In this document: in pieces, positions 23,610-60,960 of the stretch
Position numbering within the stretch: the stretch's first letter is position 1
How the letters are laid out: each line of letters begins with the position of its first letter
DNA from: Isoetes taiwanensis
Taxonomy: Eukaryota; Streptophyta; Lycopodiopsida; Isoetales; Isoetaceae
Assembly: GCA_021234155.1 (NCBI GenBank)
Contig: JAJEKV010000028.1
Span: 13,468,134-13,532,133 of the forward strand
Direction of reading: 5' to 3'
Length of the DNA stretch: 64,000 nt
Translations under genes and position numbers: made by a program
The notes under the pieces: model-generated
Databases searched by the model: none
Told to the model about the DNA's origin: nothing
Seen by the model: the letters and a program-made list of their open reading frames with translations, nothing else

Positions 23610-23615
23610 CCAGGG

Positions 23616-33493: not shown

Positions 33494-34727
33494 ATGGACG
33501 CCTTTGCCTCCCGGAAGTCACCCAGATTAAACAAAAATTTGAAAATAGTCGATTCTAGCAAGAAAGCCGAAAAAAACAAGAGGAAGGTTCAAACTTCTGA
33601 GGAACCAGGGCCAAAAAGAAGATTTATTTGTGAAGAACCCGCTGTTGTGGAAGCAAAGCATGTAAGATGTGTCAATGCAGATGAAATTTTTCCAGATTTA
33701 CAACAGATAATGGACGAAAGCGTGGGGGCCCAAAGACATCTGGGGTTCAAAGAATCTAGCGTGAAGCCGAGTGGGCGAGAACTTCTACAAACATTATGAA
33801 ATTGTTTTTGGTAAGCGGGGAGGTCACAAATCGCCATGTACCGAAGTACTTTTGCTCGTGCATTTGAACTTCAATTGTGGGTAAAAAGTAGATTGGGATA
33901 CTTTTAAAGTTTTGGCCAAAGATTTGGCAAAGGGATGAGCAAAAGAATCTGCTATTACAGAAGAAATTGGGACCTCTAAATCCACATCCAAGGTTCCTAA
34001 ATTTCAGCAAGGATTTTACCCTAAGGAAGAGCTTGAATTTGCAGAAACTCTGTTGCAGCAGTGTCATGGAGAGTTAATTAGCAGCACATCCAAGGTTGAA
34101 GAACTGAAAATTCAGCAGGCAGAATTACGTGACAATATAAATAAGATTTCAGGAAGAAAGGATGCACATGAAGAGGACCTAGCACAGATACAAGAAGACA
34201 TCAATAGTGTTCTCGACGACGCTAAGCAAAATAAGAGAGACATCAAGACTGTGCAGCAGGAGGTTGACCTTTTAATGAGGGATAGAACCAGGAAGGAAGA
34301 AATGCTGAAGAGAATTCAGGAGCCATTGGAGAAAGCCATTCGGGAAAAGGAGTTATGTGAAAAGAGGATTGCAGAACTTGAGGAGGCAAACAAAGTTCAG
34401 TTTGAGTGCTGCACACGGCTTGATGATATGCATAAGTACATGATGCATTCTGCAGCGATTCTCCTTCAGCCCAAAACAAGCTTAGTGATCTCTCCAGCTG
34501 AAGAAAAATTCATATCTGTGCATGGATGTGTGTTTTGTAGTAATGGCTTTGCTAATAATGAACCTATCCTAGTTGCTCCATGCGAGCATTCATTTCATAT
34601 CTTCTGTTTCTCATATTCTATTTCTACTAGACTATCCTGCCCAAGAGCATGCAAATGGGACGAAAACATTTCAAAGATCTTGGGTGTGTACACTGGAGGT
34701 AAGCAGTATTTCATGATTTATGTTTAA
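33494..34727 (+). pseudogene. TnC accessory protein: N-domain, coiled coil, RING-like finger
   Basis: From the ATG at 33494: a basic start (ASRKSPRLNKNLK), CVNADEIFPDLQQIMDES, then an N-terminal domain continuing in other frames through 33900 (FYKHYEIVFG, SPCTEVLLLVHL, VDWDTFKVLAKDLAKG). Its frameshifts are the reason for calling a pseudogene. From 34053 a clean 224-residue frame gives ~120 residues of coiled coil (VEELKIQQAELRDNINKI) and a finger CVFCSNGFANNEP, CEHSFHIFC, CPRACKW. This is the same CX2C...CXHX2HX2C...CX3C layout as in TnB. A donor GGAGGTAAG ends the exon near 34699. Inferred nuclear; E3-like activity is only a possibility. Confidence 0.65.
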
Positions 34728-35340
34728 TTTGCTGCACCCATGATTACTGCAATGTAGAATCCATTTACATGTAGAATCCATTTACATGTAGATTGCTGCA
34801 CTTAAGGTTTTGCTACAGCATGTAGGAGTGTACTGGTTATTTTATACTTATAGTTCCATGGCTTGCATGTCATACATATATGTGTTTCTTACATACATGT
34901 TGTACATTCACAGTGTAGGGTCCTAGATGTAGAACTTAAATACATAAAATTAGGAGTTGTGTACTGAGTTTTGTGGCAGAACATTTAGAGGTATTTTATG
35001 TAATGTCTGATGTGTACATGTGCATACATTGGAGCACATTCATGTACATTACATGTACATTCCATCTAGATAAATAGCTGTTTACATGTGTATGTACTCA
35101 AAGTACTTCAATGTAGATCAGTTCTAGTAATATGTACAGCTATTGATATGTACGTAGAGCGGTTAGAGACCTGATTAGTTTGAGGCCCGATATCCATCGT
35201 TATGTGATTTATTTTCGAGCTTCAAAGTGCCAAAAAAAAACCGGAAAGAAATTACACCACAGATCAGGTGCGCTTGTTTTCAAATTGTTTTGCATTGTGT
35301 CAGAGGAAGCAATTTCTTATTCTTGGTTCGGTTTTCACAG
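34728..35340. other. TnC intron with TACATGTA-rich sequence
   Basis: AT-rich, with many ACATGTA, TACATGT and GTACAT palindromes between the RING exon and the Lys-rich exon. The same intron is present in TnF (50240-50885). Confidence 0.6.
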
Positions 35341-36289
35341 TTTTGGAGGTTCCAAAGAAAATTGAGGTGCAAGATGTAGCCGAGGGAAAGAAAGCAGTGA
35401 TTGAAGGAAAAAGCAAAATCACTATTCCTGCGGTGATACAGGTTGAGGAGGCTGGCACTTCAGGTCTGCATGGTGACATTCCAGATTATGACGAGGAACT
35501 CGAGAGATTGAGGGAGCAGGCTAAGGCCACATCTTCAAAAGTAAAGGCAGCAGCAGAAAATGTGACTCCAAAGAAGAAGTCCACGCCTAAAAAGCCACAG
35601 AAGAAGACAATTAAAGCAGTAGAAACAGGTAAGATAGCATTTTATTTGATTAAAGACGGCGGTGAGAAGTCCATGACATCCTATGTTTACAGGTCCTAAT
35701 GAAGAGGAATCTTAGAGCATCAAGATGTAGAGCGGGGATACTCTTAAGTTTGTGTCAAATCTTGCTTCCGACATAGTAAAAAAGGCCGAAGTTTCATGAC
35801 AATGAGAAATCGAAGAGGTTGAAGACGAGGATTCTGGACCTAATAAGAATCTGAGTGAGGAAACCAAAAAAGATGGGAAGGAAATGGATACTGACTCCGA
35901 GAAAACAGTGTCAGCAGAGCAGAAGAATGATCTCTACTGGTAACTTGATCTACATATCTTACATTTTTTTTTTACATCTAGTATCCAAGTTAAAAACTTT
36001 AAAATAATATGGATAGTAGTAGACGAATATAGATGATTTGTGTAAATGTACTGGTCATTGAACCCGCATCGCAGATTCGAATCTGAGCCATATGATGTCT
36101 TGCTGAACCGAATGATGAAGCTCAAGAAGGCAAGGATTTTCCCAGGATCTTTGCCTGAAATGGAGTGTTATTTATTTGAACAAGATGTGCTGGACATGGA
36201 TGTGGGAAAATTTTCCAACCGGCATGTGGATATGTATGCCAGGTACTGGACTTTGAACTTGTTCATTTGTATGTGTAGGTCAAGTTAGT
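35341..36289 (+). pseudogene. TnC accessory protein: charged linker exons
   Basis: After an acceptor at TTTTCACAG (35340), exons encode VPKKIEVQDVAEGKKAVIEG, then a Lys-rich run (TPKKKSTPKKPQKKT, near 35570), an acidic Glu/Lys piece to ~35938 (in broken frame near 35700-35800), and from ~36072 RFESEPYDVLLNRMMKLKKA through FPGSLPEMECYLFEQDVLDM. The last piece resembles the lead-in to Ulp1 protease domains. Frames shift between exons, partly by splicing and partly by damage. Confidence 0.55.
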
Positions 36290-36316
36290 AATTTTATCCT
36301 TTTCAACTTATTATAG

Positions 36317-36649
36317 GTACCTGCAGCTCTGTGTTCCAGATGATAAGAAGGCCGACGTCTGGTTCTTCCCACCGGACAGCTTCATGGAATTTGCAGCATG
36401 GACCAAGGCAAGCGAAAAAGATAAATCTATGGCAGCCTCCGAGCGTGGAAGAGATATTGTAAAGGTAGCTCTTACAGGGATAAATTGGTTGAAGTGCAGA
36501 TGGATCATGATTCCAATGCTATGTAGAGTGACTGAACATCACACTTTGGCCATCTTCAACATGGCACTTACTAAGAGTAAGGACACCATCAACATTCAGA
36601 TCTTCAATTCTGCCGAGGACATTGACGTTGACATGCTTGCACTTAAGAG
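36317..36649 (+). CDS. TnC accessory protein: Ulp1-type protease, first half
   Basis: Exon between TTATAG (36316) and GTATTT (36650). It reads YLQLCVPDDKKADVWFFPPD near the start, then WLKCRWIMIPMLCRVTEHHT, LAIFNMAL and INIQIFNSAED. WIMIP followed by a His-containing turn and an IFNS strand matches the WxxIP...H(W)...(Y)DS pattern of C48 (Ulp1/SENP) cysteine proteases. The first His of EHHT is the likely catalytic His; the usual Asp position reads Asn here. The catalytic Cys is in the next exon, now 23 kb away at 59640. Ulp1 enzymes cut SUMO or process SUMO precursors; substrate here unknown. Confidence 0.65.
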
Positions 36650-36717
36650 GTATTTTGTCTTTCACATCTCCTTTTATTAATATTGAGTAGATTGGATACC
36701 ATGTTAGCAGCTTCTTT

Positions 36718-36748
36718 CACACTCACCCCGGTTTTTGGTCCACTGTTG
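36718..36748 (+). repeat. TnD left terminal inverted repeat
   Basis: CACACTCACCCCGG then TTTTTGGTCCACTGTTG; pairs with 59572-59602. Confidence 0.85.
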
Positions 36749-37370
36749 AAAACATCAGTTTTGGTAGGTCTACATGTCCTGTTTTCAAAGAATCCTACAT
36801 GTGGATTTGTGGAGGTATGGTTTTGTTCGATAATGGTGTTCTTTTTTTAGTGGACTAAAACATCCACTGTTGTTTTGTAGTTTCTTCTGTTGTGACATGT
36901 CATTTTATAATACAATCCACTATAGGAAAGAATACTTGAATTTCTACATGTCTAATAATTCTATTGTCACATGTCTTTATAGATGTAGGAAATAATATTT
37001 GATTCTCTACATGTCCTATACTTCCATTCACATGTCTTTATAGTAGTAGGACAGAGTACTTTATTTACTAAGGCATTGTAGGAAAGAATACATGAATTAC
37101 GACATGTGTAATACTTCTATTGTCACATGTCTTTATAGAAGTAGGAAAGCATACTTGATTCTCTACATGTCCTATCCTTCCATATCACGGGTCTTTATAG
37201 TGGTAGGACAGAGTACTTGATTTGCTACATGTGATGCACGTGCATGATCACATGTCCTTATACTAGTTTTCCATGTAAGACAAGTTACTTCAACTACTTC
37301 AATTACTTAACGCCTATTTTTGCATAACAAAACCATCAAGAATTTGATTTGTATTCCTTGAGGGGGTGCA

Positions 37371-37815
37371 GGACCGCTGCAACAAATCCCTAAGCATTAA
37401 TGTCATAGGACCACGCAAGATCCTGACAATATCCTAACATTTTGGATATTGTTAGAGAAAGACCATTAAACCACGCCTACATTTTTGCATAACAAACCAT
37501 TAAGAATTGTGAGATGTATTTCTTTATGGAGGAAAGGACCATTGCAACAAATCCCCAAGCATTAAAATGGCAAGACCATGCAATATCCTAACATTATTCC
37601 CCTATTTTGGATATCGTTAGTGGAACACCATTAAACCGTTCCTACATCTTGGTATAATTTAGACCATTAAGAATTTGAGATGTAATTGTTTATGGGGAAT
37701 AGGACCATTGCAACAAATCCCCAAGCATTATAAAATGGCAAGACTACGCAATATCCTAACATTATCCCCCCATTTTGGATATCATTAGTGGAACACCATT
37801 AAACCATGCCTATAT
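37371..37815. repeat. ~165-bp tandem repeat, three copies
   Basis: Each copy carries ACCATTGCAACAAATCCCCA, GCATTA, CAATATCCTAACAT, TTTTGGATATCGTTAG and ACCATTAAACC. Inside TnD; no coding content. Confidence 0.7.
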
Positions 37816-37894
37816 CTAGTTGGTACTAAGGTTCGCTATAGGCGATCCAATAGTTATCCCGCGTCATCCAATGGTTTTAATTGTATCTAATTTA

Positions 37895-38165
37895 TCTTAT
37901 CCAATGGTTCTTTCTAAGAATGCAATGGTTCTTTGAAAAACAAGATAACTTATTGCACTTAGATGATTTGCACTAAGAATCCAATGGTTTTTTGAAAAAC
38001 AAGATAACTTATTGCATTTAGACGATTTGCACTAAGAATCCAATGGTTCTTTGAAAAACAAGATAACTTATTGCACTTAGACGATTTTCACTAAGAATCC
38101 CATGGTTCTTTGAAAAACAAGATAACTTATTGCACTTAGACGATTTGCACTAAGAATTAGAGATG
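37895..38165. repeat. ~60-bp tandem repeat, four copies
   Basis: CAATGGTTCTTTGAAAAACA, AGATAACTTATTGCACTTAG, ACGATTTGCACTAAGAATC repeat head to tail with few changes. Confidence 0.85.
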
Positions 38166-38779: not shown

Positions 38780-41640
38780 TGGGTGGAAAGACTATCTCTT
38801 AAGGGCCTTTATTCTTTGGGTCGAATCGCTATACGGAAGGTTTTAGGGCTCGATCTTTCGGCGTCCAACGCCTCCCACTACCTCATGACATTGTGCAAGA
38901 TCACGGTCCAATCGGCTGGGGTATGGCCTCCAAAACGTAAACCCCGCGGCGTTGCTAGGTTATTGTAGGGTTTACGTTATGGAGGTCGAAGTTTTATTCG
39001 ATTGCACTTTTGAGACATGGTCGAGAAGCCGCAGTTGAAAAAAAGAAGCAATAGAAACCCGGCGAAATGGGGTTTGGATTTACCGAGGGCTTTTTCTTAC
39101 CGGTGCTCCTCAGGAGGGCAAATGCCAGTGCCTCCCTTCCCGGAGCCCGGTTTCCCTATCCGACCGTTGAATTCTCCATTCAAGTAACTTGCTTCGAGCA
39201 GGCTCAAAAAAATTCAAGATCTGTCCGGGAGAACATATCAAACCGCAAAGCGTCCTGCAGTCGACCGTGTAGAAACCCAAGTGTTTTGTCGTTCGGGCAG
39301 TACAAAGGCTCCGGAATGGAGATTTGACTTCGCCATATCGTCCGAAACAACGAAATTACCCTAGGGACCAAGTTACATGGTCATTTTTTGCAGCAAAAGA
39401 AACACGAACCCTCTACATGGCAGTATTCTGCACCCTCTGCTAAGGACAATTCACTACGAACATGTTGGACATGAGCTACTTTGGCGCTTCCGGGAGCAGG
39501 GGTGGTCTTCTGCCCACGAAACTTGGTCTCCAGGGTAATGTCGATGTTTCGAGTCCGTTGGCAGAGTCAGATCACAGTTCCGGGGTGGGATAGTTGCCCG
39601 TCCGTGGCCAGGGACCCTCCAGAGAGGACCTTTGGGTCGAACTTCTTCTGGAAGGTTTTAGGGCTCCGTCTTCTGGCGTCAACGCCCTCCCACTACCTCA
39701 TGATATTGTGCAAGATCCTGGTCCAATCTGGCTAGGGTATGGCCTCCAAAACATAAACCCTGTGCAATGCTAGGTTATTGTAGGGTTTACGTTATGGAGG
39801 TCGAGTTTTATTCAGTTGCACCTGAGACATGGTCGAGAAGCTGCAGTTGAAAACAAGAAGCAATAGAAACTGACGAAATGGGGTTTGGATTTACCGAGGC
39901 AGGCTTTCCTACCAGTGCTCCTCCGGGAGGGCAAATGTCAGTGCCTCCCTTCCCGGAGCCCGGTTTCCCTATCCGACCGTTGAATTCTCCATTCAAGTAA
40001 CTTGCTTCGAGCAGGCTCAAAAAAATTCAAGATCTGTCCGGGAGAACATATCAAACCGCAAAGCGTCCTGCAGTCGACCGTGTAGAAACCCAAGTGTTTT
40101 GTCGTTCGGGCAGTACAAAGGCTCCGGAATGGAGATTTGACTTCGCCATATCGTCCGAAACAGCGAAATTACCCTAGGGACCAAGTTACACGGTCATTTT
40201 TTGCAGCAAAAGAAACACGAACCCTCTACATGGCAGTATTCTGCACCCTCTGCTAAGGACAATTCACTACGAACATGTTGGACATGAGCTACTTTGGCGC
40301 TTCCGGGAGCAGGGGTGGTCTTCTGCCCACGAAACTTGGTCTCCAGGGTAATGTCGATGTTTCGAGTCCGTTGGCAGAGTCAGATCACAGTTCCGGGGTG
40401 GGATAGTTGCCCGTCCGTGGCCAGGGACCCTCCAGAGAGGACCTTTGGGTCGAACTTCTTCTGGAAGGTTTTAGGGCTCCGATCTTAAGCGTCAACGCGC
40501 CCTCCTACTACCTCATGACATTGTGCAAGATCCTGGTCCAATCTGGCTAGGGTATGGCCTCCAAAACATAAACCCTGTGCAATGCTAGGTTATTGTAGGG
40601 TTTACGTTATGGAGGTCGAGTTTTATTCGATTGTTTTTGAGACATGGTCGAAGCTGCAGTAAAAAAAGAAGCAATAGAAGCCCGGCGAAATGGGGTTTGG
40701 ATTTATCCTCCTCCCAGTGTCGCAATTAGAAGTCAAGAACACATTTTGTAGTAGCAAATTTTTTTGGAATGATTCGGGATCGCCAATAGATCCAAAGTCT
40801 GTTATTTCAGTTGCCATGGCTCCGCATGCATGTTCGAAAAAGGTACACCAGGTCCCAAGTGCAAGTGACCACGTTTTGGCCTCCATAACGTAAACCCTAC
40901 AATAACCTGGCAAGACACAGGGTTTGCGTTTTGGAGGCCATACCCTAGCTAGATTGGACCAGGATCTTGCACAATGTCATGAGGTAGTGGGAGGGCGTTG
41001 ATGCCAGAAGACGGAGCCCTAAAACCTTCCAGAAGTAGTTTGACCCAAAGGTCCTCTCTGGAGGGTCCCTGGCCACAGACGGGCAATTCTCCCACCCCGG
41101 AACTGTGATCTGACTCTGCCAACGAACTCGAAACATCGACATTACCCTGGAGACCAAGTTTCGTGGGCAGAAGACCACCCCTGCTCCCGGAAGCGCCAAA
41201 GTAGCTCACGTCCAACACGTTCGTAGTGAATTGGCCTTAGCGGAGGGTGCAGAATACTGCCATGTAGAGGGTTCGTGTTTCTTTTGCTGCAAAAAATGAC
41301 CGTGTAACTTGGTCTCTAGGGTAATTTCACTGTTTCAGACGACATGGCGAAGTCGATCTCCATTTAAGTCTTTGTACTTGCCCGAAACGACAAAACACTT
41401 GGGTTTCTACACTGGCCGACAAGCGGGGACACTTTATGGTTTGATATGTTATCCCGCACACATCTTGAATTTTTTGAGCCCGCCGGAAGCAAGTTACTTG
41501 AATGGAGAATTCAATGGTCGGATAGGGAAACCGGGTTCCGGGAAGGGAGGCACTGGCATTTGCCCTCCCGGAGGAGCACTGGTAGGAAAGCCTGCCTCGG
41601 TAACCTTTGTGATGCCAGTCTCCTGGGGTCTGGCCACCTA
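38780..41640. repeat. Direct and inverted ~815-bp repeat block
   Basis: A unit beginning GGCCTCCAAAACGTAAACCC recurs at 38926, 39739 and 40557 (periods about 813 and 818). An inverted copy occupies about 40905-41620, making a large foldback. Each unit starts with a hairpin, CCTCCAAAACGTAAACCC with GGGTTTACGTTATGGAGG. Frames on both strands encode repeated, unrecognised peptides and are not supported as genes. Confidence 0.75.
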
Positions 41641-41642
41641 GG

Positions 41643-48433: not shown

Positions 48434-48684
48434 TCTTTAAACAAGGATGGCTTTGACCTTCAATGTTCATAAATTTTATGAATGTTTGCATATAAGAATG
48501 TCACATATCATATTTTCTTAAAAAATGGTCATCAAATGGATAAGTAGTCAAAGAGTTCTTCTACTACTTAAAGAGTTTCAAGACTCATTTTTGCTATAAT
48601 TTAAATAGCAAAGTAGTCAAAGACTTCTTGTATTAGAGGTATCTAAACACAAACACCATAACCTTTGTACTTCAAGGATTATAT

Positions 48685-48709
48685 AGGGTAAAAGAAAGCT
48701 AGGGTGTCT
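48685..48709 (+). repeat. TnF left terminal inverted repeat
   Basis: Identical to the TnC left end at 33162 and to the complement of 57754-57778. Confidence 0.9.
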
Positions 48710-49018
48710 AAAAAAAATGCCCTTACATTATGTATAATGTAGGGCATGTAGGCACCCGTTTTTGTTATTTTTTTGAATTTTAGTTAGTTGGGATATGTAA
48801 TGATTAGGAGTAGCCACGTCAGCAATTCAAAATTATGAGTGGCAGTGGCAACCAGAACGGACCTTCATTGCAATTTTTCGGAGGGAGATTGCGAAGTGTT
48901 TCCTGTTTAGGAAAAAAATTTGCCGCCGTTCAATTTTACGTGTTTCGAAAGTGATCAACGAAGTAATTCGACCGTAACTATTCTTCTTCCTCGAAATCCT
49001 TGCGAAAAAATCCAAGCA

Positions 49019-51480
49019 ATGGGCGCCTTGCCTCCTCGGGAAGTCACCCGGATTAAACAAAATTTGAAAATAGCCGATTCTAGCAAGAAAGCCGAAAAAA
49101 CAAGAGGAAGGTTCAAACCGAGGAACCGGGGCCAAAAAGAAGACTTATTTGTGAAGAACCCGTTGTTGTGGAAGCAAAGCATGTAAGATGTGTAAATGCG
49201 GATGAAATTTTTCCAGATTTACAACGGATAATGGACGAAAGCAAAGTGGGGGGCCCAAAGACATACTGGGGGTTCAAAGAATCTAGCGTGAAGCCGAGTG
49301 GGTCGAGAACTTCTACAAACATTATGAAATTGTTTTTGATGGCGGGAGGTCACAAATCGCCATGTACCGAAAGTACTTTGCTCGTGCATTTGCCCTTCAA
49401 TTGACAAGTAAAAAAAAGTAGATTGGGATACTTTTTTAAAGTTTTGGCCAAAGATTTGGCAAAGGGAGGAGCAAAAAGAATCGCTATTACAGGAAAGAAA
49501 TTGCGACCTCTAAATCCACATCCAAGGTTCCTAAATTTCAGCAAGGATTTTACCCTAAGGAAGAGCTTGAATTTGCGTAAACTCTGTTAAAGCAGTTGTC
49601 ATGGAGAGTTAATTAGCAAGACATCCAAGGTTGAAGAACTGAAAATCCAGTGATGTAATTACGTGACAATATAAATAAGATTTCGGGGAAGAAAGGATGC
49701 ACATGAAGAGGACCAGTACAGATACAAGAAGACATCAATAGTGTTCTCGGCGACGCCAGCGAGAATAAGAGAGACATCAAGGCTGTGCGGCAAGGGAGGT
49801 AGACCTTTTGATGAGAGATAGAAACAGGAAGGAAGAAATGTCAAGAGAATTCAGGAGCCATTGGAGAAAGCCATTCTGGGAGAAGGAGTTATGTGAAAAG
49901 AGGATTGCAGAACTTGAGGAGGCCCACAAAGTTCGGCTTTTGAGTGCCGCAGACGGCTTGATGATATGCATAAGTACATGATGCATTCCCCGCAGCGATT
50001 CTCCTTCAGCCCAAAACAAGCTTAATGATCTCTCCGGTGAAGAAAAATTCATATCATTGCATGGATGTGTGTTTTGCGGTAATGGCTTTGCTAATAATGA
50101 ACCTATCCTAGTTGCTCCATGCGAGCATTCATTTCATATCTTACGTTTCTCATATTCTATTTCTATTTGGACTATCCGCCCAAGAGCATGCAAATGGGAC
50201 GATAACATTTCAAAGACCTTGGGTGTGTATTAATCGGAGGTAAGCAGTATTTCATGATTTATGTTCAATTTGCTGCACCGTGATTACCGCAATGTAGAAT
50301 CCATTTACATGTAGAATCCATTTACATGTAGATTGTGCACTTAAGGTTTTGCTACAAGCATGTAGGAGTGTCTTGGTTATTTTATACTTATAGTTCCTTG
50401 GCTTGCATGTCATACATATATGTGTTTCTTACATACATGTTGTACATTCACAGGTGTAGGGTCCTAAATGTAGAACTTAAATACATAAAATTAGGAGTTG
50501 TGTAATCGAGTTTTGTGGCGTAACATTTAGAGGTATTTTATGTAATCGTGTGATGTGTACATGTGCATACATTGAGCACATTCATGTACATTACATGTAC
50601 ATTCCATCTGGATAAATAGCTGTTTACATATGTATGTACTCAAAGTACTTCAATGTAGATCGGTTCTAGTAATATGTACGACTATTGATATGTACTGAAG
50701 CGATTTAGAGACCCGATTAGTTTGAGATCGATATCCATTTGTTATGTGATTTATTTTCGAGCTTCAAAGTGCCAAAAACTACGAAAGCAGAAATTACACC
50801 ACAGATCAGTGCTTTGTTTTCAAATTCGATTTGCATTGTGTCGTGGGAAGCAATTTCTTATTCTTGGTTCGGTTTTCACAGTTTTGGAGGTTCCAAAGAA
50901 AATTGAGGTGCAAGATGTAGCCGAGGGAAAGAAAGCGGTGATTGAAGGAAAAAGCAAAATCACTATTCTAGCGGTGATGAGGTTGAGGAGGCGGCACTTC
51001 AGTGCATGGTGACATTCCACATTATGAGCGGGGAACTTCGAGATTGAGGGGGCGAGGCTAAGGCCACATCTTCAAAAGTAAAAGGCAGCAGCTAGAAGAT
51101 GTGACTCAAAGAAGAACTCCACGCCTAAAAAGCCGAAGAAGAAGATAATTGAAGCAAGAGAAAGCAGGTAAGAAAGCATTTTATTTTAGTGTACAAGAAA
51201 TGAGAAATCCATGACATCCTATGTTTCTGTGTCCTAATGAAGAGGAATATTCCGAGCATCAAGATGTAGAGCCCTATACTTTTAAGTTTGTGTCAAAACT
51301 TGCTTCCCGACATAGCAAAGGACATTTGAAATTCCCGACAATGAGAAATCGAAGAGGTTGCGACGCGAGGATTCGGACCTAATAAGAATGAAAGTGAGGA
51401 AACCAAAAAAGTAGGGAAGGAAATGGATACTGACTCCGAGAAAACAGTATCAGCAGAGCAGAAGAATGATCTCTACAGGT
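49019..51480 (+). pseudogene. TnF accessory gene, N-terminal exons (heavily altered)
   Basis: It aligns base by base with TnC 33494-35940: N-domain (CVNADEIFPDLQRIMDES, GGHKSPCTESTLLVHL), coiled coil, finger (CVFCGNGFANNEP near 50070) and Lys-rich linker. Numerous one- to four-base differences break every frame. They are concentrated where TnC has CAG or CTG (see findings), and they fall off sharply after ~51480. Either this half is truly decayed or the sequence here is unreliable. Confidence 0.6.
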
Positions 51481-51599
51481 AACTTGATCTACATTTCTTA
51501 CATTTTTTTTACATCTAGTATCCAAGTTAAAAACTTTAAAATAATATGGATAGTAGTAGACGAATGTAGATGATTTGTGTAAATGTAGTAGTCATTGAA

Positions 51600-52646
51600 C
51601 CCAGGCTGCAGTTCAATACAGGCCATACGATGCCTTGCTGAACCGAATGATGAAGCTCAAGAAGGCAAGGATTTTCCCAGGATCTTTGCCTGAAATGGAG
51701 TGTTATTTATTTGAACAAGATGTGCTGGACATGGATGTGGGGAAATTTTCCAACCGGCATGTGGATATGTATGCCAGGTACTGGACTTTGAACTTGTTCA
51801 TTTGTATGTGTAAGTCAAGTTAGTAATTGTATCCTTTTCAACTTGTTATAGGTACCTGCAGCTCTGTGTTCCAGATGATAAGAAGGCCGACGACGTCCCG
51901 GTTCTTCCCACCGGACAGCTTCATGGAATTTGCAGCATGGGCCAAGGCAAGCGAAAAAGATAAATCTATGGCAGCCTCCGAGCGTGGAAGAGATATTGTA
52001 AAGGTAGCTCTTACAGGGATAAATTGGCTGAAGTGCAGATGGATCATGATTCCAATGCTATGTAGAGTTACTGAACATCACACTTTGGCCATCTTCAACA
52101 TGGCACTTACTAAGAGTAAGAACACCATCAACATTCAGATCTTCAATTCTGCAGAGGGACATTGGCGTTGACATGCTTGCACTTAAGAGGTATTTTGTAT
52201 TTCACATCTCCTTTTATTAATATTGAGTAGATTGGATACCATGTTAGCAGCTTCTTTCATTCATTTGCTACAAAATAGATCCGGTCTTTTTGCGGGCTCC
52301 ATATCCTCACTATGGCACGCGGTTGTGTCGAAAGTGTCCCACTTTTTGAAGCATGGACAAAATCCTTCACCGGTTGTGAAGATTCATAAGTGTCCCTGGC
52401 AGAAAAGATGGGGATTCATGTGGCCTCTATGTTGCAGCTTATATGCAGAAGTTTGTAGACACAGTCGTGTGTGGTAAAACTACCAATGTGAGTGTCTCAC
52501 TTCTTTTGTCTTGCAAACAAATAGTTTTTAATACTTATTATGTAAGTATTGTTGTCACATTTGCAGATTACCCGAAACTGGTTCTTGACAAAGTATGCAT
52601 CGATCGTCGTGATGTTCTCACCCGAAAGCACTACTTCAGGAGTTAG
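51600..52646 (+). pseudogene. TnF Ulp1-type protease exons (disabled)
   Basis: The first half (51600-52188) is almost the same as TnC: LNRMMKLKKARIFPGSLPEM, WIMIPMLCRVTEHHT and IFNSAE. The acceptor before the second half reads GCGGGC where TnC has GCAGGC. In the catalytic exon the Gln-Gln pair is changed (CTGGCAG for CACAGCAG), and one extra A shifts the frame just before the Cys motif, so the peptide reads CPWQKRWGF. Protease activity from this copy is not expected. Confidence 0.7.
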
Positions 52647-52843
52647 ACCACATTCAAATCGCACCCGAACCTATTAGACCACCTGGTACTAATAAATGTT
52701 GCTAAGAAACAGCCTCTCCCTATTGTCAATGCTAAACACTATTTGATTATAAAATACACATTTTTTCATTGAATTTGAATACAATCTCTTTTTATTCAAC
52801 TCCACCATACTTTATTGATAAATTGCATGTTCTTTCATATCAG

Positions 52844-53532
52844 GTGTACAGAAAAGGTTGATAGTGTTTGATATCAATAATGTTTTGGCAAAACAAATAC
52901 ATAGGACTTTGGTATCAGATGATCAGCTAGTTGGAAATTATGACATAATAGGCAAGAAAGTGTTGTTTTTAAGGCCGCACCTAGACGAATTCCTGGAATT
53001 TGTATTTGAACACTTTGAAGTAGGAATATGGTCATCAATAGCTCCATGGAACCTATCAAGAGTAGTGGATAAAATCTTGACAATGACGCAGATAAGGGAC
53101 TTAAGGTTCACCTTCGATGGAAGCCACTATTTGGAGCTGCCTTTCCGGATTGCAGCAAGTGAAGATAAACCTTTGTATCTGAAGCCAATTGAGTTTATAT
53201 ACGAGAAGTATCCAGACAGGAATAACAGCAACACACTAATAGTAGACGACTCCGAGTACAAGATGCTCTTCAATCCCAACGAAAATTGCATATGCCCACC
53301 TTCATGGCAGGAAAGTGATGTTGAAGACACATGTCTCTTGACACTTCTGAAACCATGGCTAGAGGGTTTGTTGATAGCACCAGACCTGCAACAGTATGTG
53401 AAGCAGAATCCTTTACGCAATCCATCCGATGTACTAACAACAGCTGTTTGGAGGCAAATGCTTTCAGAGGGCTACAGGGACAGAGATGGCATGTCCAGGC
53501 TATGGACAAGCTGCAAGAAAGTAACATATTAA
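52844..53532 (+). CDS. TnF accessory protein: FCP1-like HAD domain
   Basis: Last exon, after acceptor TATCAG (52843). It is intact for ~229 residues: QKRLIVFDINNVLAKQ (motif I, Asn at the usual second Asp), LRPHLDEFLEFVFEHFEVG, IWSSIAPWNLSRVVDKI (motif II Ser), KPIEFIYEKYP (Lys) and LIVDDSEYKMLFNP (motif IV Asp pair). A C-terminal tail follows with LEGLLIAPDLQQYVKQNPL. The tail resembles the end of plant FCP1-like proteins as I recall them. Clearly homologous to the TnB domain at 20442 and ~97% like TnC. FCP1/SCP enzymes remove phosphate from Ser in Pol II tails or other proteins; activity here is unproven. Confidence 0.75.
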
Positions 53533-53772
53533 AACAGCAGAATAGTATGTACTGGCTTCACATCGGCTGTGACCAGATTTTGAATGTAAATTAATGTTAA
53601 TATAAAACATGAACAACAGACTTGTATATATTGGCATCATATATGATATGACCAGGTTGTATATCTTGTGATATGTAATACAAGAGTTTTTGTCTCCATA
53701 CATGTTCCACTTTCTGCTTTGTTTCATGAATCAAAAGAAAAGCTATTGATATCCATTATAACAGAACAAGTT

Positions 53773-54322
53773 CACAGACTAGTTTAACTTCTTCATGCAA
53801 CAATTGATGAACATTTTGTACTTTTCGATATACATTGTGCTTGGAAACGAGAAGATATTGTGTGATCTTGAAATTTAAGTATCAAAATGCACTTCAGATT
53901 AAAAATAAGTAAATAAGAAAAAACTTGCAGCAATCGACTATTTTTCTCAACATAACACAGACTAGTTTAACTTCTTCATGCAACAATTGATAAACATTTT
54001 GTACTTTCTGATATACATTGTGCTTGGAAGCGAAGATATTGTGTGATCTTGAAATTTAAGTATCAAAATGCACATCGATTAAAAAATAAGTAAATAAGAA
54101 AAAACTTGCAAACAATCGACTAGTTTTCTCAACATAACTGAGACTAGTTTAACTTCTTCATGCAACAATTGATAAACATTTTGTACTTTATGATATACAT
54201 TTTGCTTGGTCACGAGAAGATATTACGTGATAATTGAAATTGAAGTATCAAAATGCACTTCAGATAAAAAATAAGTAAATAACAAAAAACTTACAAAGAA
54301 TCGACTAGTTTTCTCAACATAA
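53773..54322. repeat. Three ~183-bp tandem repeats between convergent genes
   Basis: CACAGACTAGTTTAACTTCT ... TTTTCTCAACATAA recurs at 53773, 53956 and ~54139. It sits where the two TnF genes meet and may hold both 3' ends. Confidence 0.8.
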
Positions 54323-54570
54323 GAAGAAGATGATGGCAAATATGAAAGTTCCTTTGTACGTAACTTAGTCATGTGCACTCAACAATCTCGGGGTAGGCTT
54401 GATATAAGCATGTCATGCACCTCTCGTGTGATCATATATTTGTGACGTGCCCCTTCAACTTATGCTTGACCTGCCGTGATCGTGAACTTTGCTCCAATTC
54501 TGATTCATTTGGTACCAATACTATTTTGTCATCCAAGCAACTTGTACTTGTGCTTTGTGCCTTGTAGCGG

Positions 54571-57505
54571 TTGATAGTAATGACCGACTATAACCCCATC
54601 ACCAACCAAAGATTCTATTTCCATAGTCGTCAATCACATCTTCCGAAGAATATGCATCTCCTTCACGATAGGGAGGGCCGAAGTATGGAACATTTTCATG
54701 ATTCCCCAGGGCAGCAAAAGATGCAAATATGTCTCCAATTTGGAGTACATCGGATAGTTCTTGCTCATCACCGCATAAAACCAACTAGCTCTTCTTGTTC
54801 ATGGCGACGGGCGAACTAGGCTCCAGCTTATGCGACTTCCATGCACCACAATGCTCGAGATTCTCACATTCTCCCCATCTGAAATTCAAGCAACCATTGC
54901 AAAAACATGGCGAGGGATCTATACATGACAAGTGTTAAATTTGGATTAATAGCGGACACACAATGTATAGCTAGAGTACCAGGCAATGTCTCACAATCTG
55001 AACGAGGGTCCCTGTTAATGTCTTCTGCCATCACCTCCCATATGACTCTGTCCATTTTGCACTTCTTTTGTCTCAGCAAAGTGCAAGCAGAGTTGGCACC
55101 CAAAATCGGAACACCATTCTCTTTCCTTTGCTCGTCTGCTAGGAACCTTTTCTCCAAAGCAGCCTGCCCATCATGTTCTCCTTTTCCATGGCCTGAGCCA
55201 AAATAATTCCACTGCATCCTAATTTTATACCTGTTATAATATTGGGCCACATTCAAATAAAAGGCTCGAGAACACTTAAACTGAGCAGCACACCCATCAG
55301 ACCACATGACATGGTATTTGATGTGGCCAAAACCTTTTTGCATCATCCAAATATGGTGCTTCTTGAGTGCAGCCTGAACAAAGAAAGCATCATGCTTCAT
55401 AACATCGGAAACATACAAATGAACAGTTTTTTTCAGCTCGCCATTGACTTTCATCATGGTTATATGCACCAGAATAGTTATCTGGTCATTGTTCCAATGC
55501 TCGGACTGAACTTCCCTGAATGGCTGCAAAGTGTAGTTCTCTGCAAAGTCCATTACTGACAAAACAGAATCATCCCTCAAATTTTGCACTGATTTCCTGA
55601 ATTGTTTGCTCGCCAACTTTGAAAAGTTGTGAATAGTGAACTTTGTAAGGTCTTTGAAACATCTTGTCAAGCAATGTACACAGAGTCCCGCTTTTCAAGA
55701 ACAAGCTTCAACCTCCTTGAAGTGCCAGCTTTGGAAGGTTCGTTCACGTACTTGTAAACTTGCCATTCAATGTTCTCATTCTGCGACTCTTTCTCCTTAG
55801 GACAGATTTGAATATTTTCAGTGCCACAGTTCTGGCACTCTCCCTTCACACAGTCCAAACTATGCCACTCTTCGCCTTCCTTATCACAGACCGTAGCTCT
55901 CCACATAGCACCAACATTTTGAAATGTTTTAGAAGGAGCTTGGCAGACGCCATTGTTCTCATCTGCTGCACAAACACCACAAGAACATGTACAGTTGGCA
56001 TGAAATTTGCTCCTCAGGACGCTAAAAGCTTTCCTGTATAGATCAGCTTGTTCATGCTTCACGCAAAGCAAAGATGTGTTCTCTCTTTCAACCTTCTCAC
56101 ACACGTGAGGCTTAAGCAGCTCGAACTTTTCGATGCTAATCTTCACTTCGGGGATGTTCATCTTTGAACATCTCATACAATTCACTCGCAAGGAAAAAAA
56201 ATGGCATGTATAAGTAAGATATAAATTAGAACTACTTACTTAATTCAAAGATGTTTGCAGACATTGCATTAGTTCTATGGCACTCAGATCATGATTTGAT
56301 ATACATTCAACTACTATACCACACCATCATACATACCCTGTACATGATATGTACAAATGTATAAATAATGTACTCCAAAGAGTTCCAGATGTACATAAAA
56401 AAACTCAATATGTAACCAGGTGTCACGGTATCATCGTCAGACAGATGTATGTATTTCATACTTTTCTTATGGAAGGAAGTACATTTAAATACTTTTATGT
56501 ATCACCCTATCTTTAAAGACTATCCTGAGAGAGGAAAGGCTTAAAATGTACTATAATGTACTTGGGAACTACAAAAAGCAAGACTATAATAACACAACCG
56601 ACTTTCAACACATTTTCGCCTTATGCCACATTGGATGTAACGGAAGTACATCCAAGTACTTTTCCCCTGTTAAACATAGCCCATTCAAGTACCTCCAAGT
56701 GTAAAATATAATTATTGTAGTTGGATGTACTACAATGTATATCGATACATCCCTTACATGGAATGCAAATAGGATTACTAAACTTATCCGGGATGCACAT
56801 AAGCTAGCTTCTATCAAGCTTGCAAGAAAGAGGATTAAAAGACTTAAAACTGACACTGGGGCATGTCCAAAAAACTGGATTGGAAGTGTCCTTTTCTTCC
56901 CGACATCCCCCGCACTTTGGAGAAGTTTTTTGTGTGGGTTAACCAAAACTCATTTACCAACCGTTTGGTTGATTAGGAAGCATGTCCGCCTGGGTTGCCT
57001 TCCCCGCCGGTGCCCACATATTAGCACCGATAATGACATCCGCTTTCTTCTAATTGCAGCTTTTGTGAGGTTTCTTGCTTGCACTTGAAGAATTTTGGAG
57101 GCTACTCCTTTTTGCACGAGTTTTCCATTCTCACCAACAATCATTGATAACAGGGAATGCTTAGTCGCTAATTTATCATTGCTATTTGCTCTTTTCACTT
57201 CCACGGAGACCTTCCGTATTATATTTTTTAGCATAGTATCCTTGAATTGCTTTATTTGGATTTCCAATGGCGGGGTTCAAAAAGAAGTGCAGCCTTTCAT
57301 CGAGCAGTTTTCCTTCGCTAAAGCTCTCCTTTGCACGGGACGTAAATCTTGAACGATCATATATAAATTTACAAATTTCATCAATCTTACGCTTCATTTT
57401 CTTTGTCACATTCCCGATATTGCAATCTTCTTGCGCCATTTCTGTTCCTTCGTTGTTCATCATGGTTCTTGCGTGGTTTAGGGTTAGCTGGAGGAATTCT
57501 GGCAA
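54571..57505 (-). pseudogene. TnF DDE-type transposase
   Basis: Minus-strand coding segments in N-to-C order. 57505-57182 starts MPEFLQLTLNHARTMMNNEG. 57267-56605 has VASKILQVQARNLTKAAIRR and HKKLLQSAGD. 56191-55667 is the Cys-rich region (CTCSCGVC, CQNCGTENIQIC). 55670-54864 is the core: LSVMDFAENYTLQP, VMWSDGCAAQFKCSRAF and GSGHGKGEHDG. 54784-54571 is a C-terminal piece VLQIGDIFASF. It parallels the TnB/TnA proteins throughout, with an intron full of TACATGTA near 56220-56600. The core is open for 268 residues. Frame changes between segments, and a stop near 56940, suggest it is damaged, though some may be unrecognised introns. Confidence 0.75.
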
Positions 57506-57753
57506 GAAGGAGGGAAATCCTGGAGCTGGGCGAAGTTTTAGCCAGAAAGTGGGAAATTCTCCTAACGTTCAGGCGTTTCTTGGAGTGGTTACAGCGGCGG
57601 GAATTGAAATCTGCTTCATGATTGCGTTTTAATTGACGTGGCAAGTAGTTTCGAAAAAAAAGATTCCATAATATAGCTATTATGTACATACTGAAAAAAC
57701 GGTTATGTATTTGAAATGTGATACATCTCTTACTCTACATTTGGCCAAATGTA

Positions 57754-57778
57754 AGACACCCTAGCTTTCTTTTACCCT
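57754..57778 (-). repeat. TnF right terminal inverted repeat
   Basis: Reads AGACACCCTAGCTTTCTTTT then ACCCT on plus; perfect complement of the left end over 25 bases. Confidence 0.9.
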
Positions 57779-59007
57779 ATAAACCCTTCGCATTGCAAAG
57801 TATAATGTCATTTATTAGCATCTTCGCGGACATTTCCCCTTCCTTATCGGAAGCAATTCATCTCAAGGAACTGTATTTGATTCCGAATGCCTTCATCCTC
57901 TCTCAATCTCTCACAATATCCCAGGAGGCCAGAGTTACCGTCACCACAAAATTGGACTAAACTTGAAACGTCCCGAAATGACGGTTTCTTGCCACTCAAC
58001 GGATCCAATGGATATAAACTGTCATCTGCCCAAATGTCGACACTTTTTGAGCCTGCAAGACGCAACACGTCGAGATCTAAGTTCTTATTTTTTAGACCTC
58101 CTTTTTTGCGATTGAAGACTGGAGCATATTCGTGAGTCGGGTTGGATCCTTATCCACACATCATTTGAGCTTCCATATCGCTGCGTGGATCGCGACGCGG
58201 TAGCGAAATGAAGGCGCATAATTTGTATGCCCCAAAGATAATTCGGCCGCGTGTGAGCCTAACGTCCGCATACTAACCTCGTTTTTTGAAATTTGCAACG
58301 TGCATATGGAAATCGAAAAGTCCATTCTCCTACAATCCATGCTTTTATACATTAAGCAAATTCAAATTTCGAATTGTAGGGGGTGGGAAGCCTGCATTGG
58401 GATGAAGTAAAGATCCCGGTTAATGCTGGGTTCACATGGATGAACTCGCGGTTACCGGCTTAAAACCCGCTGAACTTGGGTCGAGGCAAAAAAATTCAGC
58501 CCCGCTTTTGGAAAATCAGCCCTCGCGAAGATCCAACTTGCGTGGAATGATGCAAATTGAATTTTTAATCAGTCTCGACTCCGCTAGAACTCAATGAGGG
58601 AGGGCCTAAACTTCTCCATGTGAACCACCCATAAGGCGCAGCCGCAGCGCCTCGAAATGAAAGTCTGATACAAAGCTTCAACCTACACATTCAAATTTTG
58701 AAATGTGGAAGGCGGGAAGCTTGTATGGCCATGGCCTCTAAATGAAATAGCGCAAGAATCGGTGACGCGCATGCTTGGTATCTGACAAACCAAGAGACAC
58801 GTGTTGCATCAGTCTGTCTGACAACCAACAGAATTAAATACATATGGCGCAATGAATGCGCGATCCCCCTTATTCCGGGAGAATATTCCAAGTAAATCTG
58901 TACTGATGAGATTTTGGTATCCTAGGTGGCATGGGAAAAAAGGAGCGGAAATATGACGTGGAATGGCTGATAGGAGGCCATTTTGAGACCCCAAATCCGC
59001 CCTAATG
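57779..59007. other. Right arm of TnE
   Basis: No supported gene. Short frames on both strands are unrelated to any motif I know. The last ~90 bp carry the TnE end and the ATTCCACGTCAT motif shared with its left end. Confidence 0.5.
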
Positions 59008-59571
59008 ATAACACTTGAAACAACGTGTCTTTTGTTGATAAAAACAACACTTCTCAACGTCGCTTTTTATTTTCTACGTGTTCTTTTTTTTTACACTTTC
59101 ATTTATAGCATTGTAATTTAATTCTTCACGTGTTGTAATTTAGTTTTTCATGTGGATTTCTTGAAAAATTATGTATGTTTTTTAGGGAAAATAATGTCAA
59201 CTTAAAAAACTACAAGTAGAGAAAAAAAAACAACACGCATAGAAAAGGAAAAAACAACTGTCTGTTTTAGTTTTCCACATGTAAGAATATTCAAATCTAG
59301 ATGTGTTATTTAGAAGACAAACAACGATTGGCTCCTCCAAAAACAATAGTCAAGAAAAAACCACACGTTGACAAAAATCTGCTAAAAACAACAGTGAAAA
59401 AAAGGACACGTTGACCAAAAAACAAAAAGGTGCCAAAAAACCACCGTGGGAAATTTTTGCCAAAAAACCACTGTCTCTTTGTGCAAATCCGGATAAACGG
59501 GCCACGTGGACTTTTGGGGCCATTTTGCTGTTGTTTTTGGCATAAAACAACACTTCCGTACAACTAAAAAA
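59008..59571. other. Right subterminal region of TnD
   Basis: A-rich, with many AACAAC, CACGTTGAC and AAAAAACCAC motifs in loose repetition up to the right inverted repeat. No coding content. Confidence 0.5.
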
Positions 59572-59602
59572 CAACTGTGGACCAAAAATTGGGGTCAGTG
59601 TG
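59572..59602 (-). repeat. TnD right terminal inverted repeat
   Basis: Reverse complement CACACTGACCCCAA then TTTTTGGTCCACAGTTG. Flanked by TTT. Confidence 0.85.
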
Positions 59603-59639
59603 TTTCATTCATTTGCTACAAAATAGATCTGGTCTTTTG

Positions 59640-60048
59640 CAGGCTCTACATCCTCACTATGGCACGCGGTTGTGTCGAGTGTCCCACTTTTTTGAAGCAT
59701 GGACAAAATCCTTCACCAGTTGTGAAGATTCATAAGTGTCCACAGCAGAAAGATGGGGATTCATGTGGCCTCTATGTTGCAGCTTATATGCAGAAGTTTG
59801 TAGACACAATCGTGTGTGGTAAAACTACCAATGTGAGTGTCTCACTTCTTTTGTCTTGCAAACAAATGGTTTTTAATACTTATTATGTAAGTATTGTTGT
59901 CACATTTGCGAGACAACCAAACCGGTTCTTGCCAAAGTATGCGGAGGATCGTCGTGATGTTCTCATCCGAGCACTACTTCAGGAGTTAGACCACATTCAC
60001 ATCGCACCCGAAACCATTAGACCACCTGGTACTAATAAATGTGGCTGA
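59640..60048 (+). CDS. TnC accessory protein: Ulp1-type protease, catalytic half
   Basis: After acceptor TTTTGCAG (59639), the exon reads FLKHGQNPSPVVKIHKCPQQ then KDGDSCGLYVAAYMQKFVD. CPQQKDGDSCGLY is the hallmark of C48 proteases: the Gln pair forms the oxyanion hole and the Cys of SCG is the nucleophile. A donor follows KTTN (59834). The next exon (from ~59910) gives NRFLPKYAEDRRDVLIRALL and ends near TNKCG. The motif is intact here, unlike in TnF. With the first half at 36317-36649 it would make a complete domain, but 22.9 kb of TnD now lies in the intron between them. Confidence 0.75.
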
Positions 60049-60190
60049 GAAACAGCCTATCCCTATTGTCAATGCTAAACACTATTTGATTATAAAATAC
60101 ACATTTTTTCATTGAATTTTAATGAATAAAATCTCTTTTTATTCAACTCCACCATACTTTATTGATAAATTGCATGTTCTTTTATATCAG

Positions 60191-60880
60191 GTGTACAGAA
60201 AAGGTTGATAGTGTTTGATATCAATAATGTTTTGGCAAAACAAATACATAGGACTTTGGTATCAGATGATCAACTAGTTGGAAATTATGAAATAATAAGC
60301 AAAGAAAGTGTTGTTTTTAAGGCCCCACCTAGACGAATTCCTGGAATTTGTATTTGAACACTTTGAAGTAGGAATATGGTCATCAATAGCTCCATGGAAC
60401 CTATCAAGAGTAGTGGATAAAATCTTCACAATGACGCAGATAAGGGACTTAAGGTTCACCTTTGATGGAAGCCACTGTTTGGAGCCGCCTTTCCGGATTG
60501 CAGCATGTGAAGACAAACCTTTGTATCTGAAGCCAATTGAGTTTATATACGAGAAGTATCCAGACAGGAATGACAACAACACACTAATAGTAGACGACTC
60601 CGAGTACAAGATGCTCTTCAATCCCAACGAAAATTGCATATGCCCACCTTCATGGCAGGAAAGTGATGTTGAAGACACAGGTCTCTTGACACTTCTGAAA
60701 CCATGGCTAGAGGGTTTGTTGATAGCACCAGACCTGCAACAGTATGTGAAGCAGAATCCTTTACGCAATCCAACCGATGTACTAACAGCAGCTGTCTGGA
60801 GGCAAATGCTTTCAGAGGGCTACAAGGACAGAGATGGCATGTCCAGGCTATGGACAAGCTGCAAGAAAGTAACATATTGA
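60191..60880 (+). pseudogene. TnC accessory protein: FCP1-like HAD domain, frameshifted
   Basis: The same domain as TnF 52844-53532. The start (KRLIVFDINNVL) is in one frame and the rest (from 60308, LRPHLDEFLEF onward to KPIEFIYEKYP, LIVDDSEYK and LQQYVKQNPL) in another, because one extra base near 60302 (AAGCAAAGAAAG against TnF GGCAAGAAAG) shifts the frame. Other differences from TnF are few substitutions. Confidence 0.75.
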
Positions 60881-60960
60881 AACAGCAGAATAGTATGTAC
60901 TGGCTTCACATCGGCTGGACCAGATTTTGAATGTAATTTAATGTTAACTAGTAAACGGGT

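What the first reader, a model, noticed from the sequence alone, without database searches (positions are those of the whole stretch)
33494..60880. Transposon accessory protein combining coiled coil, RING-like finger, Ulp1 protease and FCP1-like HAD domain
In TnC and TnF one plus-strand gene runs N-domain, coiled coil, CX2C...CXHX2HX2C...C finger, Lys-rich linker, C48 protease (CPQQKDGDSCG) and HAD domain (LIVDDSEYK), convergent with the transposase. Ulp1 domains are known in some plant transposons, but I know of none fused to a RING-like finger and an FCP1-type domain. All three domain types act on protein modification (SUMO/ubiquitin, phosphate), so the element may edit host modification marks or its own transposase. 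One-protein architecture is inferred from exon order.
Basis: partly seen in the sequence, partly recalled or inferred. Interest (0 to 1): 0.85.

Follow-up and report, generated by a model that had tools for sequence, protein, structure and literature searches.

The report
Transposon accessory protein with RING-HAD domains
A large group of plant jumping genes carries, next to its transposase, an extra gene that seems to join a RING-type zinc finger, sometimes an altered SUMO-protease fold, and a phosphatase-like domain with one catalytic residue replaced, so its product may read or tag host proteins rather than edit them.

Summary
TnF (48687-57782) is a transposon with 24-bp TIRs and a 4-bp TSD. 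Its plus-strand accessory gene has eight inferred, phase-compatible exons: N-domain, coiled coil, RING-H2-like finger, Lys-rich linker, Ulp1/C48-like fold, FCP1/NIF-type HAD. It converges with a DDD-type transposase. TnC is a left-end fragment; exons 6-8 and a transposase were not found there. The quoted CPQQKDGDSCG lies only in a third fragment (59737-59769).

In the host genome (probably Isoetes taiwanensis), 42 of 45 listed Ulp1 loci have a HAD exon just downstream (query held both domains). Five families (A, C, D, E, F) pair this transposase type with the accessory; in D, E and F, including a complete element of this window (16435-23610), it is RING-HAD without Ulp1.

Against 'editing': the HAD has Asn for the second catalytic Asp in 8 of 8 sequences from families A-F (6 of 6 host paralogues keep Asp); the Ulp1 triad is C-H-N in A and more degraded in B and C. 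I favour an adaptor that binds and ubiquitylates, perhaps working like VANC anti-silencing proteins, since short motifs crowd the noncoding DNA of A and C. Architecture is well supported; function is inferred.

The parts
48687..57782 (.). TnF, whole element: 24-bp TIRs GGGTAAAAGAAAGCTAGGGTGTCT, 4-bp flank TATA on both sides
49019..50239 (+). Accessory gene exon 1 (approximate): N-domain, coiled coil, RING-H2-like finger (about 50066-50230); frame broken in this copy
   Evidence: Pfam zf-RING below cut-off on the TnC and L010 copies
50882..51167 (+). Exon 2, Lys-rich linker (approximate)
51231..51478 (+). Exon 3, acidic linker (approximate), weakly constrained
51612..51777 (+). Exon 4, start of the C48-like region (approximate)
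51852..52189 (+). Exon 5, C48/Ulp1-like, with the His (HHTLAI) and the Asn in place of Asp (FNSAE)
52296..52487 (+). Exon 6, C48/Ulp1-like Cys region; frame broken in TnF (CPWQKRWGFMW)
52567..52685 (+). Exon 7, end of the C48 region; phase-1 donor CTG|GTACTA
52844..53532 (+). Exon 8, FCP1/NIF-type HAD domain, motif I DINN
54700..57465 (-). Transposase gene of TnF (approximate, frame broken); DFAENY 55533-55550, SDGC 55275-55301, GKGEHDG 55167-55187
50442..50695 (.). Cluster of ATGTAC/GTACAT motifs in intron 1
56340..56730 (.). Cluster of ATGTAC/GTACAT motifs in an apparent intron of the transposase gene
33163..36720 (+). TnC: left-end fragment with TIR and exons 1-5; RING 34527-34652; no exons 6-8 or transposase found
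59609..60946 (+). Third fragment (approximate ends): exon 6 (CPQQKDGDSCG 59737-59769), exon 7, HAD exon; no transposase found
16435..23610 (.). Second complete element of the same kind (family E): TIR GGGTGTAAATATG, 4-bp flank CAGG on both sides
20442..23260 (-). Its accessory gene (approximate): N-domain, coiled coil, RING-H2 22313-22194, basic linker, HAD with DLNGVL about 21050-20442; no Ulp1
16958..19294 (+). Its transposase, convergent with the accessory gene

Best explanation
TnF belongs to a large clan of two-gene cut-and-paste DNA transposons (DDD-type transposase, GGG-starting TIRs, 4-bp TSD, Sola-like in form). The second gene encodes one spliced protein whose conserved core is N-domain, coiled coil, RING-H2-like finger, basic linker and a C-terminal SCP/FCP1-fold HAD domain; in families A to C a C48/Ulp1-like fold sits before the HAD domain. 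I propose that it works as an adaptor rather than an editor: the coiled coil oligomerises it, the HAD domain (nucleophile Asp, motif II Ser/Thr, motif III Lys and first motif IV Asp kept, acid/base Asp replaced by Asn) and the altered Ulp1 fold hold phosphorylated and SUMO-marked nuclear proteins without efficient turnover, and the RING finger brings a ubiquitin E2. Held near the element's noncoding motif clusters, it keeps the element expressed or unsilenced, as VANC proteins do for VANDAL elements. Shown: architecture and order in genomic DNA, selection, residue changes, motif clusters. Inferred: splicing, every binding and catalytic step, and the silencing role.
For: Colinear exons in L001-L006, L008 and L010 and 42 of 45 listed Ulp1 loci with HAD downstream. 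Phase-compatible junctions in A; phase-1 Ulp1-HAD intron also in B (L013, L021) and in 2 of 4 C copies. dN/dS with CHG-adjacent codons masked: N-domain plus coiled coil 0.07-0.15, RING segment 0.09-0.14, Ulp1 exons 5 and 6 0.08-0.15, HAD 0.28-0.30. HAD matches PF03031 and SCP structures. Asp-x-Asn in 8 of 8 sequences of A-F, Asp-x-Asp in 6 of 6 host paralogues read. RING ligand pattern in 6 of 6 chosen sequences. Convergent transposase of the same type beside the accessory in A, C, D, E, F. ATGTAC/GTACAT: 22 in 3.8 kb of TnF noncoding DNA, shuffle mean 3.1, maximum 10 in 500; 62, 34 and 27 against 4.3, 4.0 and 2.3 expected in three family C loci. VANC binds a short motif in noncoding TE DNA (PMC5735166, passages); some VANC genes carry Ulp1 (PMC13317346, passages).
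Against: No transcript or protein data. No DNA-binding domain was recognised in the Pfam scans of parts. Homology to Sola or VANC could not be tested. Asn at the HAD +2 position may lower rather than abolish turnover, and Cys-His-Asn triads work in papain-type proteases (recalled), so the family A Ulp1, which is strongly conserved, could be active. The motif was picked because it was the most enriched, so the shuffle test is after the fact; it is also above expectation in coding DNA (6, mean 1.4, maximum 8 in 500). Clusters could be transposase sites or by-products of tandem duplication, and are less clear in E and F. RING scores lie below Pfam cut-offs, and E and F matched no RING family well. 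The family B Ulp1 reading rests on one copy (L021) of an error-prone assembly.
Confidence: 0.4

Rival explanations
1. Editing enzyme: the family A protein removes SUMO and phosphate and adds ubiquitin, on host chromatin proteins or on its transposase.
For: Ulp1 exons in A are under strong purifying selection and keep Cys, His and the Gln before it; HAD keeps the nucleophile Asp, motif II, Lys and motif IV.
Against: The catalytic-position Asp is Asn in both domains; Ulp1 is further degraded in B (one copy) and C, and absent in D, E, F.
Confidence: 0.2
2. Transposition cofactor: the protein partners the transposase (nuclear import, end pairing, or guarding it from the proteasome) and has no role in silencing.
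For: The two genes travel together, convergent, in A, C, D, E and F. Of the 150 NIF/HAD rows listed, host genes included, 14 have one of the 150 listed family F-type transposase rows within 5 kb, and 14 of 14 are convergent (a lower bound, as both lists are cut and only one transposase query was used).
Against: Does not by itself explain the phosphatase and Ulp1 folds or the internal motif clusters.
Confidence: 0.25
3. Two genes: a RING-Ulp1 gene that ends at the stop after exon 7, and a separate HAD gene.
For: In family A exon 7 can be read on to a stop (NKCG*) in several aligned copies, L010 included; D, E and F HAD frames contain an in-frame ATG before the domain.
Against: A, B and C HAD exons have no start codon before motif I and begin at an acceptor in phase with the exon 7 donor; F and the window E element show acceptor-like sites before the HAD exon too.
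Confidence: 0.08
4. Passenger gene capture without function, drifting since insertion.
For: Many copies are frame-broken; exon 3 is nearly neutral.
Against: dN/dS well below 1 in seven of the eight regions tested, and order kept between families at 35-52% HAD identity (A, B, C).
Confidence: 0.04

Closest known systems
VANC / KIU accessory proteins of VANDAL (Mutator-like) elements of Arabidopsis (PMC5735166, PMC13317346, passages)
   Same: Plant DNA transposon with a transposase gene and a further gene; some VANC copies carry a captured Ulp1 domain; short motifs cluster in noncoding element DNA.
   Different: Different transposase and ends; no RING or HAD mentioned in the passages read; anti-silencing not tested here.
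Sola superfamily DNA transposons (PMC10741241, PMC3627910, passages)
   Same: 4-bp TSD, DDD-type transposase, TIRs, size range, reported from moss and not common in flowering plants.
   Different: No sequence comparison with Sola was possible; such an accessory gene is not mentioned in the passages read.
SCP/FCP1-type HAD phosphatases (PF03031; human CTDSP1)
   Same: Fold and order of motifs I-IV.
   Different: Second Asp of motif I is Asn in 8 of 8 sequences of families A-F.
C48 / Ulp1 SUMO proteases (PF02902)
   Same: Order of His, acidic-position, Gln and Cys segments; L010 passes the Pfam cut-off.
   Different: Asp is Asn in family A; further losses in B and C; absent in D, E, F.

Membership tests
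Sola superfamily | 4-bp target site duplication | tested here: met
   7 of 7 elements with both ends found: TATA, TAGA, TACA, GATA, TACT, TATA, CAGG. No end pair was found for D or for three C loci
Sola superfamily | DDD-type transposase core | tested here: inconclusive
   DFAENY, SDGC and GKG[ET]HDG conserved; the AlphaFold model gave no fold match at E 1e-3
Sola superfamily | Sequence homology to known Sola transposases | not testable with these tools
   No Repbase here; no Pfam match over cut-off
FCP1/NIF HAD (PF03031) | Pfam score over cut-off | tested here: met
   65.5 bits in TnF against 21.8; 50.0 in B and 50.4 in C; 75.9 in D and 76.1 in E
FCP1/NIF HAD (PF03031) | Catalytic motif DxDx[T/V] | tested here: not met
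   DxN in 8 of 8 sequences of A-F, 11 of 11 with G and H; motif definition from PMC7281111 passages
C48 / Ulp1 protease (PF02902) | Pfam score over cut-off | tested here: met
   25.8 bits for L010 against 20.7; a composite of close family A exons 20.6; family B no match; family C not scanned; best PDB hits weak, E 0.11-0.43
C48 / Ulp1 protease (PF02902) | His-Asp-Cys triad plus Gln | tested here: not met
   His-Asn-Cys with Gln in A; His lost in B (one copy); His and Gln lost in C by eye
RING-H2 finger | Eight-ligand pattern C-x2-C..C-x-H-x2-H-x2-C..C-x2/3-C | tested here: met
   6 of 6 chosen sequences of A, D, E, F (pattern written after seeing them) and the window E element; TnF itself fails; C not settled because frames are broken
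RING-H2 finger | Pfam RING score over cut-off | tested here: not met
   Best 25.5 bits against 27 in A, 20.6 against 27.3 in D; E only Prok-RING_1 at E 0.059, F none
VANC anti-silencing proteins | Loss of methylation at target elements | not testable with these tools
   No methylation data
VANC anti-silencing proteins | Sequence homology to VANC | not tested
   No VANC sequence was compared

The most novel reading that the evidence does not exclude
An ancient clan of lycophyte transposons carries its own anti-silencing factor built from mark readers: a phospho-reader made from a disabled CTD phosphatase, a SUMO-reader made from a disabled Ulp1 fold and a RING ubiquitin ligase on one chain, steered by family-specific motif clusters to the element's noncoding DNA. 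It would be an invention parallel to VANC, tying escape from silencing to transcribing RNA polymerase II.
Probability: 0.2. Interest if true: 0.87.

Novelty: new variant of a known kind. Interest (0 to 1): 0.64.

Why it matters
Transposon accessory proteins with captured host domains are known, and Ulp1 in plant elements is known, but a RING plus FCP1-type HAD protein as the standing partner of a transposase did not appear in the papers listed by my searches (listings only, open-licence papers). Its occurrence in five transposon families makes it a system that can be tested. If it counters silencing it would show that plant transposons outside Mutator evolved dedicated anti-silencing factors, with a domain logic (reading or trapping phosphate and SUMO marks while ubiquitylating) that points to defined host targets.

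Tried and rejected
Processed copies as transcript evidence: one spliced junction, exon 7-8, was sought genome-wide with up to 3 mismatches, 0 matches; the other junctions were not tried. A possible exon 7-8 fusion at C1028 (L015) turned out to keep a gap of intron size. Viral relatives of the HAD: 130 pattern matches, none confirmed; PHROGs gave nothing useful. Transposase fold search: no match at E 1e-3 or better; top hits include RNase H-like Argonaute and terminase folds but prove nothing. The HAD model has low mean pLDDT (56.8) and low TM-scores, yet the 21 best matches are SCP or CTDNEP1 phosphatases. Frame breaks as a sign of dead genes: not relied on, because substitutions between close copies crowd at CHG triplets in most copies. 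The Ulp1 fold could not be modelled because it is split over exons. A first co-occurrence count used hand-picked rows, one of them family H (14 of 56); I recounted with every listed row (14 of 150).
Full report
Host. G000 has 1,658,258,908 bases in 1110 contigs. The Isoetes taiwanensis paper (PMC8566536, passages) gives 1658.30 Mb in 204 scaffolds plus 909 contigs, from Oxford Nanopore and Illumina reads. I take the host to be that quillwort; no marker gene was compared.

What is in the window. TnF spans 48687-57782, with 24-bp TIRs and TATA on both sides. Its plus strand carries the accessory gene, its minus strand a transposase; the two converge. TnC (from 33163) has the left TIR and exons 1-5, then diverges near 36.7 kb; exons 6-8 and a transposase were not found there by tblastn. 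A third piece, about 59.6-60.95 kb, has exons 6-8 only. CPQQKDGDSCG occurs only in that piece (59737-59769), LIVDDSEYK in TnF and in that piece. The joined picture nevertheless matches copies elsewhere.

Copies in the genome. The HAD exon has 156 matches, a lower bound (150 of 4779 candidates scored). I fetched 14 stretches. L001-L005 carry all eight exons in order, L006 all but exon 2, L008 all eight with exon 1 cut at the stretch edge and a longer gap before the HAD exon, and the diverged L010 (HAD 78% identical to the query) all eight, with a frame break in exon 1 and a stop in exon 5. L007 has exons 6-8 only, L009 lacks exons 4 and 5 and most of exon 1, and L011-L014 showed only the HAD exon at E 1e-3. 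Of 45 Ulp1 loci in the listed rows, 42 have a HAD exon downstream on the same strand within 3 kb (HAD rows). The list is cut and the query held both domains, which favours loci with both. The three misses have both Ulp1 exons but no listed HAD row.

One gene. Exon borders in family A fit GT-AG sites with matching phases in most copies aligned; single copies have lost sites. Exon 7 can also be read to a stop, but the HAD exon has no start codon before motif I and begins at an acceptor in phase 1, matching the exon 7 donor. In family B the same phase-1 intron is seen in L013 and L021, and in family C in L017 and L018; in L019 the acceptor AG is changed and in L020 the donor stretch is deleted. 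The spliced exon 7-8 junction was not found in genomic DNA. Transcript evidence is lacking.

Selection. Between L010 and four close copies (L002, L004, L005, L006; comparisons share L010, so they are not independent), with codons next to CHG sites masked, dN/dS is 0.07-0.15 for N-domain plus coiled coil, 0.09-0.14 for the coiled-coil end plus RING, 0.04-0.16 for exon 4, 0.08-0.15 for Ulp1 exons 5 and 6, 0.22-0.35 for exon 7, 0.28-0.30 for HAD, and 0.73-0.91 for the acidic exon 3 (three copies). Unmasked values are mostly higher, all below 1. Exon 2 was not tested.

Other families. A family B HAD query also found family C, 34-37% identical, with open frames mostly of 220-280 residues. Family C keeps the N-domain, coiled coil, Lys-rich stretch, a Ulp1-like stretch, exon 7 and HAD, and the same kind of transposase on the opposite strand; its RING stretch could not be read in one frame. 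No transposase was sought for family B. A genome search with PF03031 showed many further similar open frames at about 65-80 bits, below the canonical host genes. Representatives L022 (D), L023 (E) and L026 (F) have a coiled coil, RING, basic linker and HAD, with too little space for Ulp1, and an N-domain whose likeness to that of A is weak. Their downstream stretches hold the convergent transposase, 34-41% identical to that of TnF in the longest matches. Of the 150 rows listed, host genes included, 14 have one of the 150 transposase rows within 5 kb; 14 of 14 are convergent and none has another orientation. Both lists are cut and the transposase query came from F, so this is a lower bound. The window itself holds a complete family E element at 16435-23610, with CAGG on both sides.

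Element type. All 7 elements with both ends located have 4-bp target duplications: TATA, TAGA, TACA, GATA, TACT, TATA, CAGG, and their ends start with GGG. No end pair was found for D, G or three C loci. The transposase keeps DFAENY, SDGC and GKG[ET]HDG; the shared Asp of HDG suggests a third Asp. This fits the description of Sola elements (DDD, 4-bp TSD, moss; PMC10741241 passages; Sola2 with AT-rich 4-bp TSD, PMC3627910 passages). Homology to Sola could not be tested.

Domains and their catalytic state. HAD: PF03031 at 65.5 bits in TnF, SCP-type structures as best fold matches though the model is of low confidence. Motif I is Asp-x-Asn in 8 of 8 sequences of families A-F, and in 11 of 11 with G and H, whose nature is not established. 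Host paralogues keep Asp-x-Asp in 6 of 6 read; three of these, near-duplicates, were left out of the alignment. [quoted passage not shown] I infer reduced turnover with substrate binding kept. Ulp1: L010 passes the Pfam cut-off (25.8 against 20.7), a composite of close copies scores 20.6, family B has no match; phmmer against PDB gave only weak hits, among them SENP7. In A the residues read His, Asn, Gln, Cys; in B (L021 only) His is Gln; in C, by eye on weak alignments, His and Gln are gone and Cys remains. RING: the ligand pattern, written after seeing them, holds in 6 of 6 chosen sequences, but Pfam scores stay under cut-off.

Motif clusters. ATGTAC or GTACAT occurs 28 times in TnF; 22 lie in 3.8 kb that I took as noncoding (shuffle mean 3.1, maximum 10 in 500), 6 in 5.3 kb of coding DNA (mean 1.4, maximum 8), against 27 in 46.6 kb of other window DNA. 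The motif was chosen as the most enriched one, so the test is after the fact. Family C has 62, 34 and 27 sites against 4.3, 4.0 and 2.3 expected in L017, L018 and L020. Family D has GTATTGGA, with 5 of 7 sites between the listed frames of the two genes; E has AAGCACTT near the ends and inside; F has no clear cluster. In the window E element AAGCACTT occurs 4 times, near both ends and inside, but is not among its commonest 8-mers. In Arabidopsis, VANC21 binds a nine-base motif in noncoding element DNA and VANC causes loss of methylation (PMC5735166 passages), and some VANC genes carry Ulp1 (PMC13317346 passages). This likeness is why I rank an anti-silencing adaptor first. It is an analogy, not a test.

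Caution on sequence quality. CHG triplets make up 12.5% of aligned columns but hold 108 of 249 substitutions in TnF, 31 of 70 in TnC, 85 of 175 in L001, 46 of 112 in L002, 85 of 160 in L003 and 29 of 88 in L005; L006 (40 of 176) and L004 (26 of 150) are nearer to background. This fits base-calling errors at methylated CHG sites, so broken frames and single-copy residue readings should be rechecked. It also hints that the elements are methylated.

Literature. Searches for Ulp1 with transposon, RING finger and FCP1, for Ulp1 accessory genes (15 of 2,525 listed), for FCP1-like or NLI factors in transposons (12 of 88 listed) and for transposase with RING, HAD-like and Ulp1 (2 papers) showed no such protein in titles and abstract starts. 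The library holds open-licence papers only.

Noticed in passing
window 48687-57782, 33163-36720 and L001-L006: Substitutions between close copies crowd at CHG triplets in six of eight copies, which fits nanopore errors at methylated sites and may serve as a crude methylation signal.
   Followed up: partly
L024, L025, L028: Another repeated gene family (G) with a different N-terminal part (FVVIAGQHSMMAMQ, ParB-like by eye, recalled) and an Asp-x-Asn HAD; no transposase match in the L024 plus L032 stretch.
   Followed up: partly
L027: Family H: a further Asp-x-Asn HAD (FDLNGVL) at the end of a longer gene of unknown kind.
   Followed up: no
window 14760-16527, minus strand: Another transposase copy of the same clan, about 45% identical to family F; no HAD exon found beside it by tblastn.
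   Followed up: no
window 41633-43457: Minisatellite of a 19-base unit, about 95 copies.
   Followed up: no
window 37316-38157 and 53773-54322: Tandem arrays of about 165, 59 and 182 bases; the last lies between the two convergent genes of TnF.
   Followed up: no
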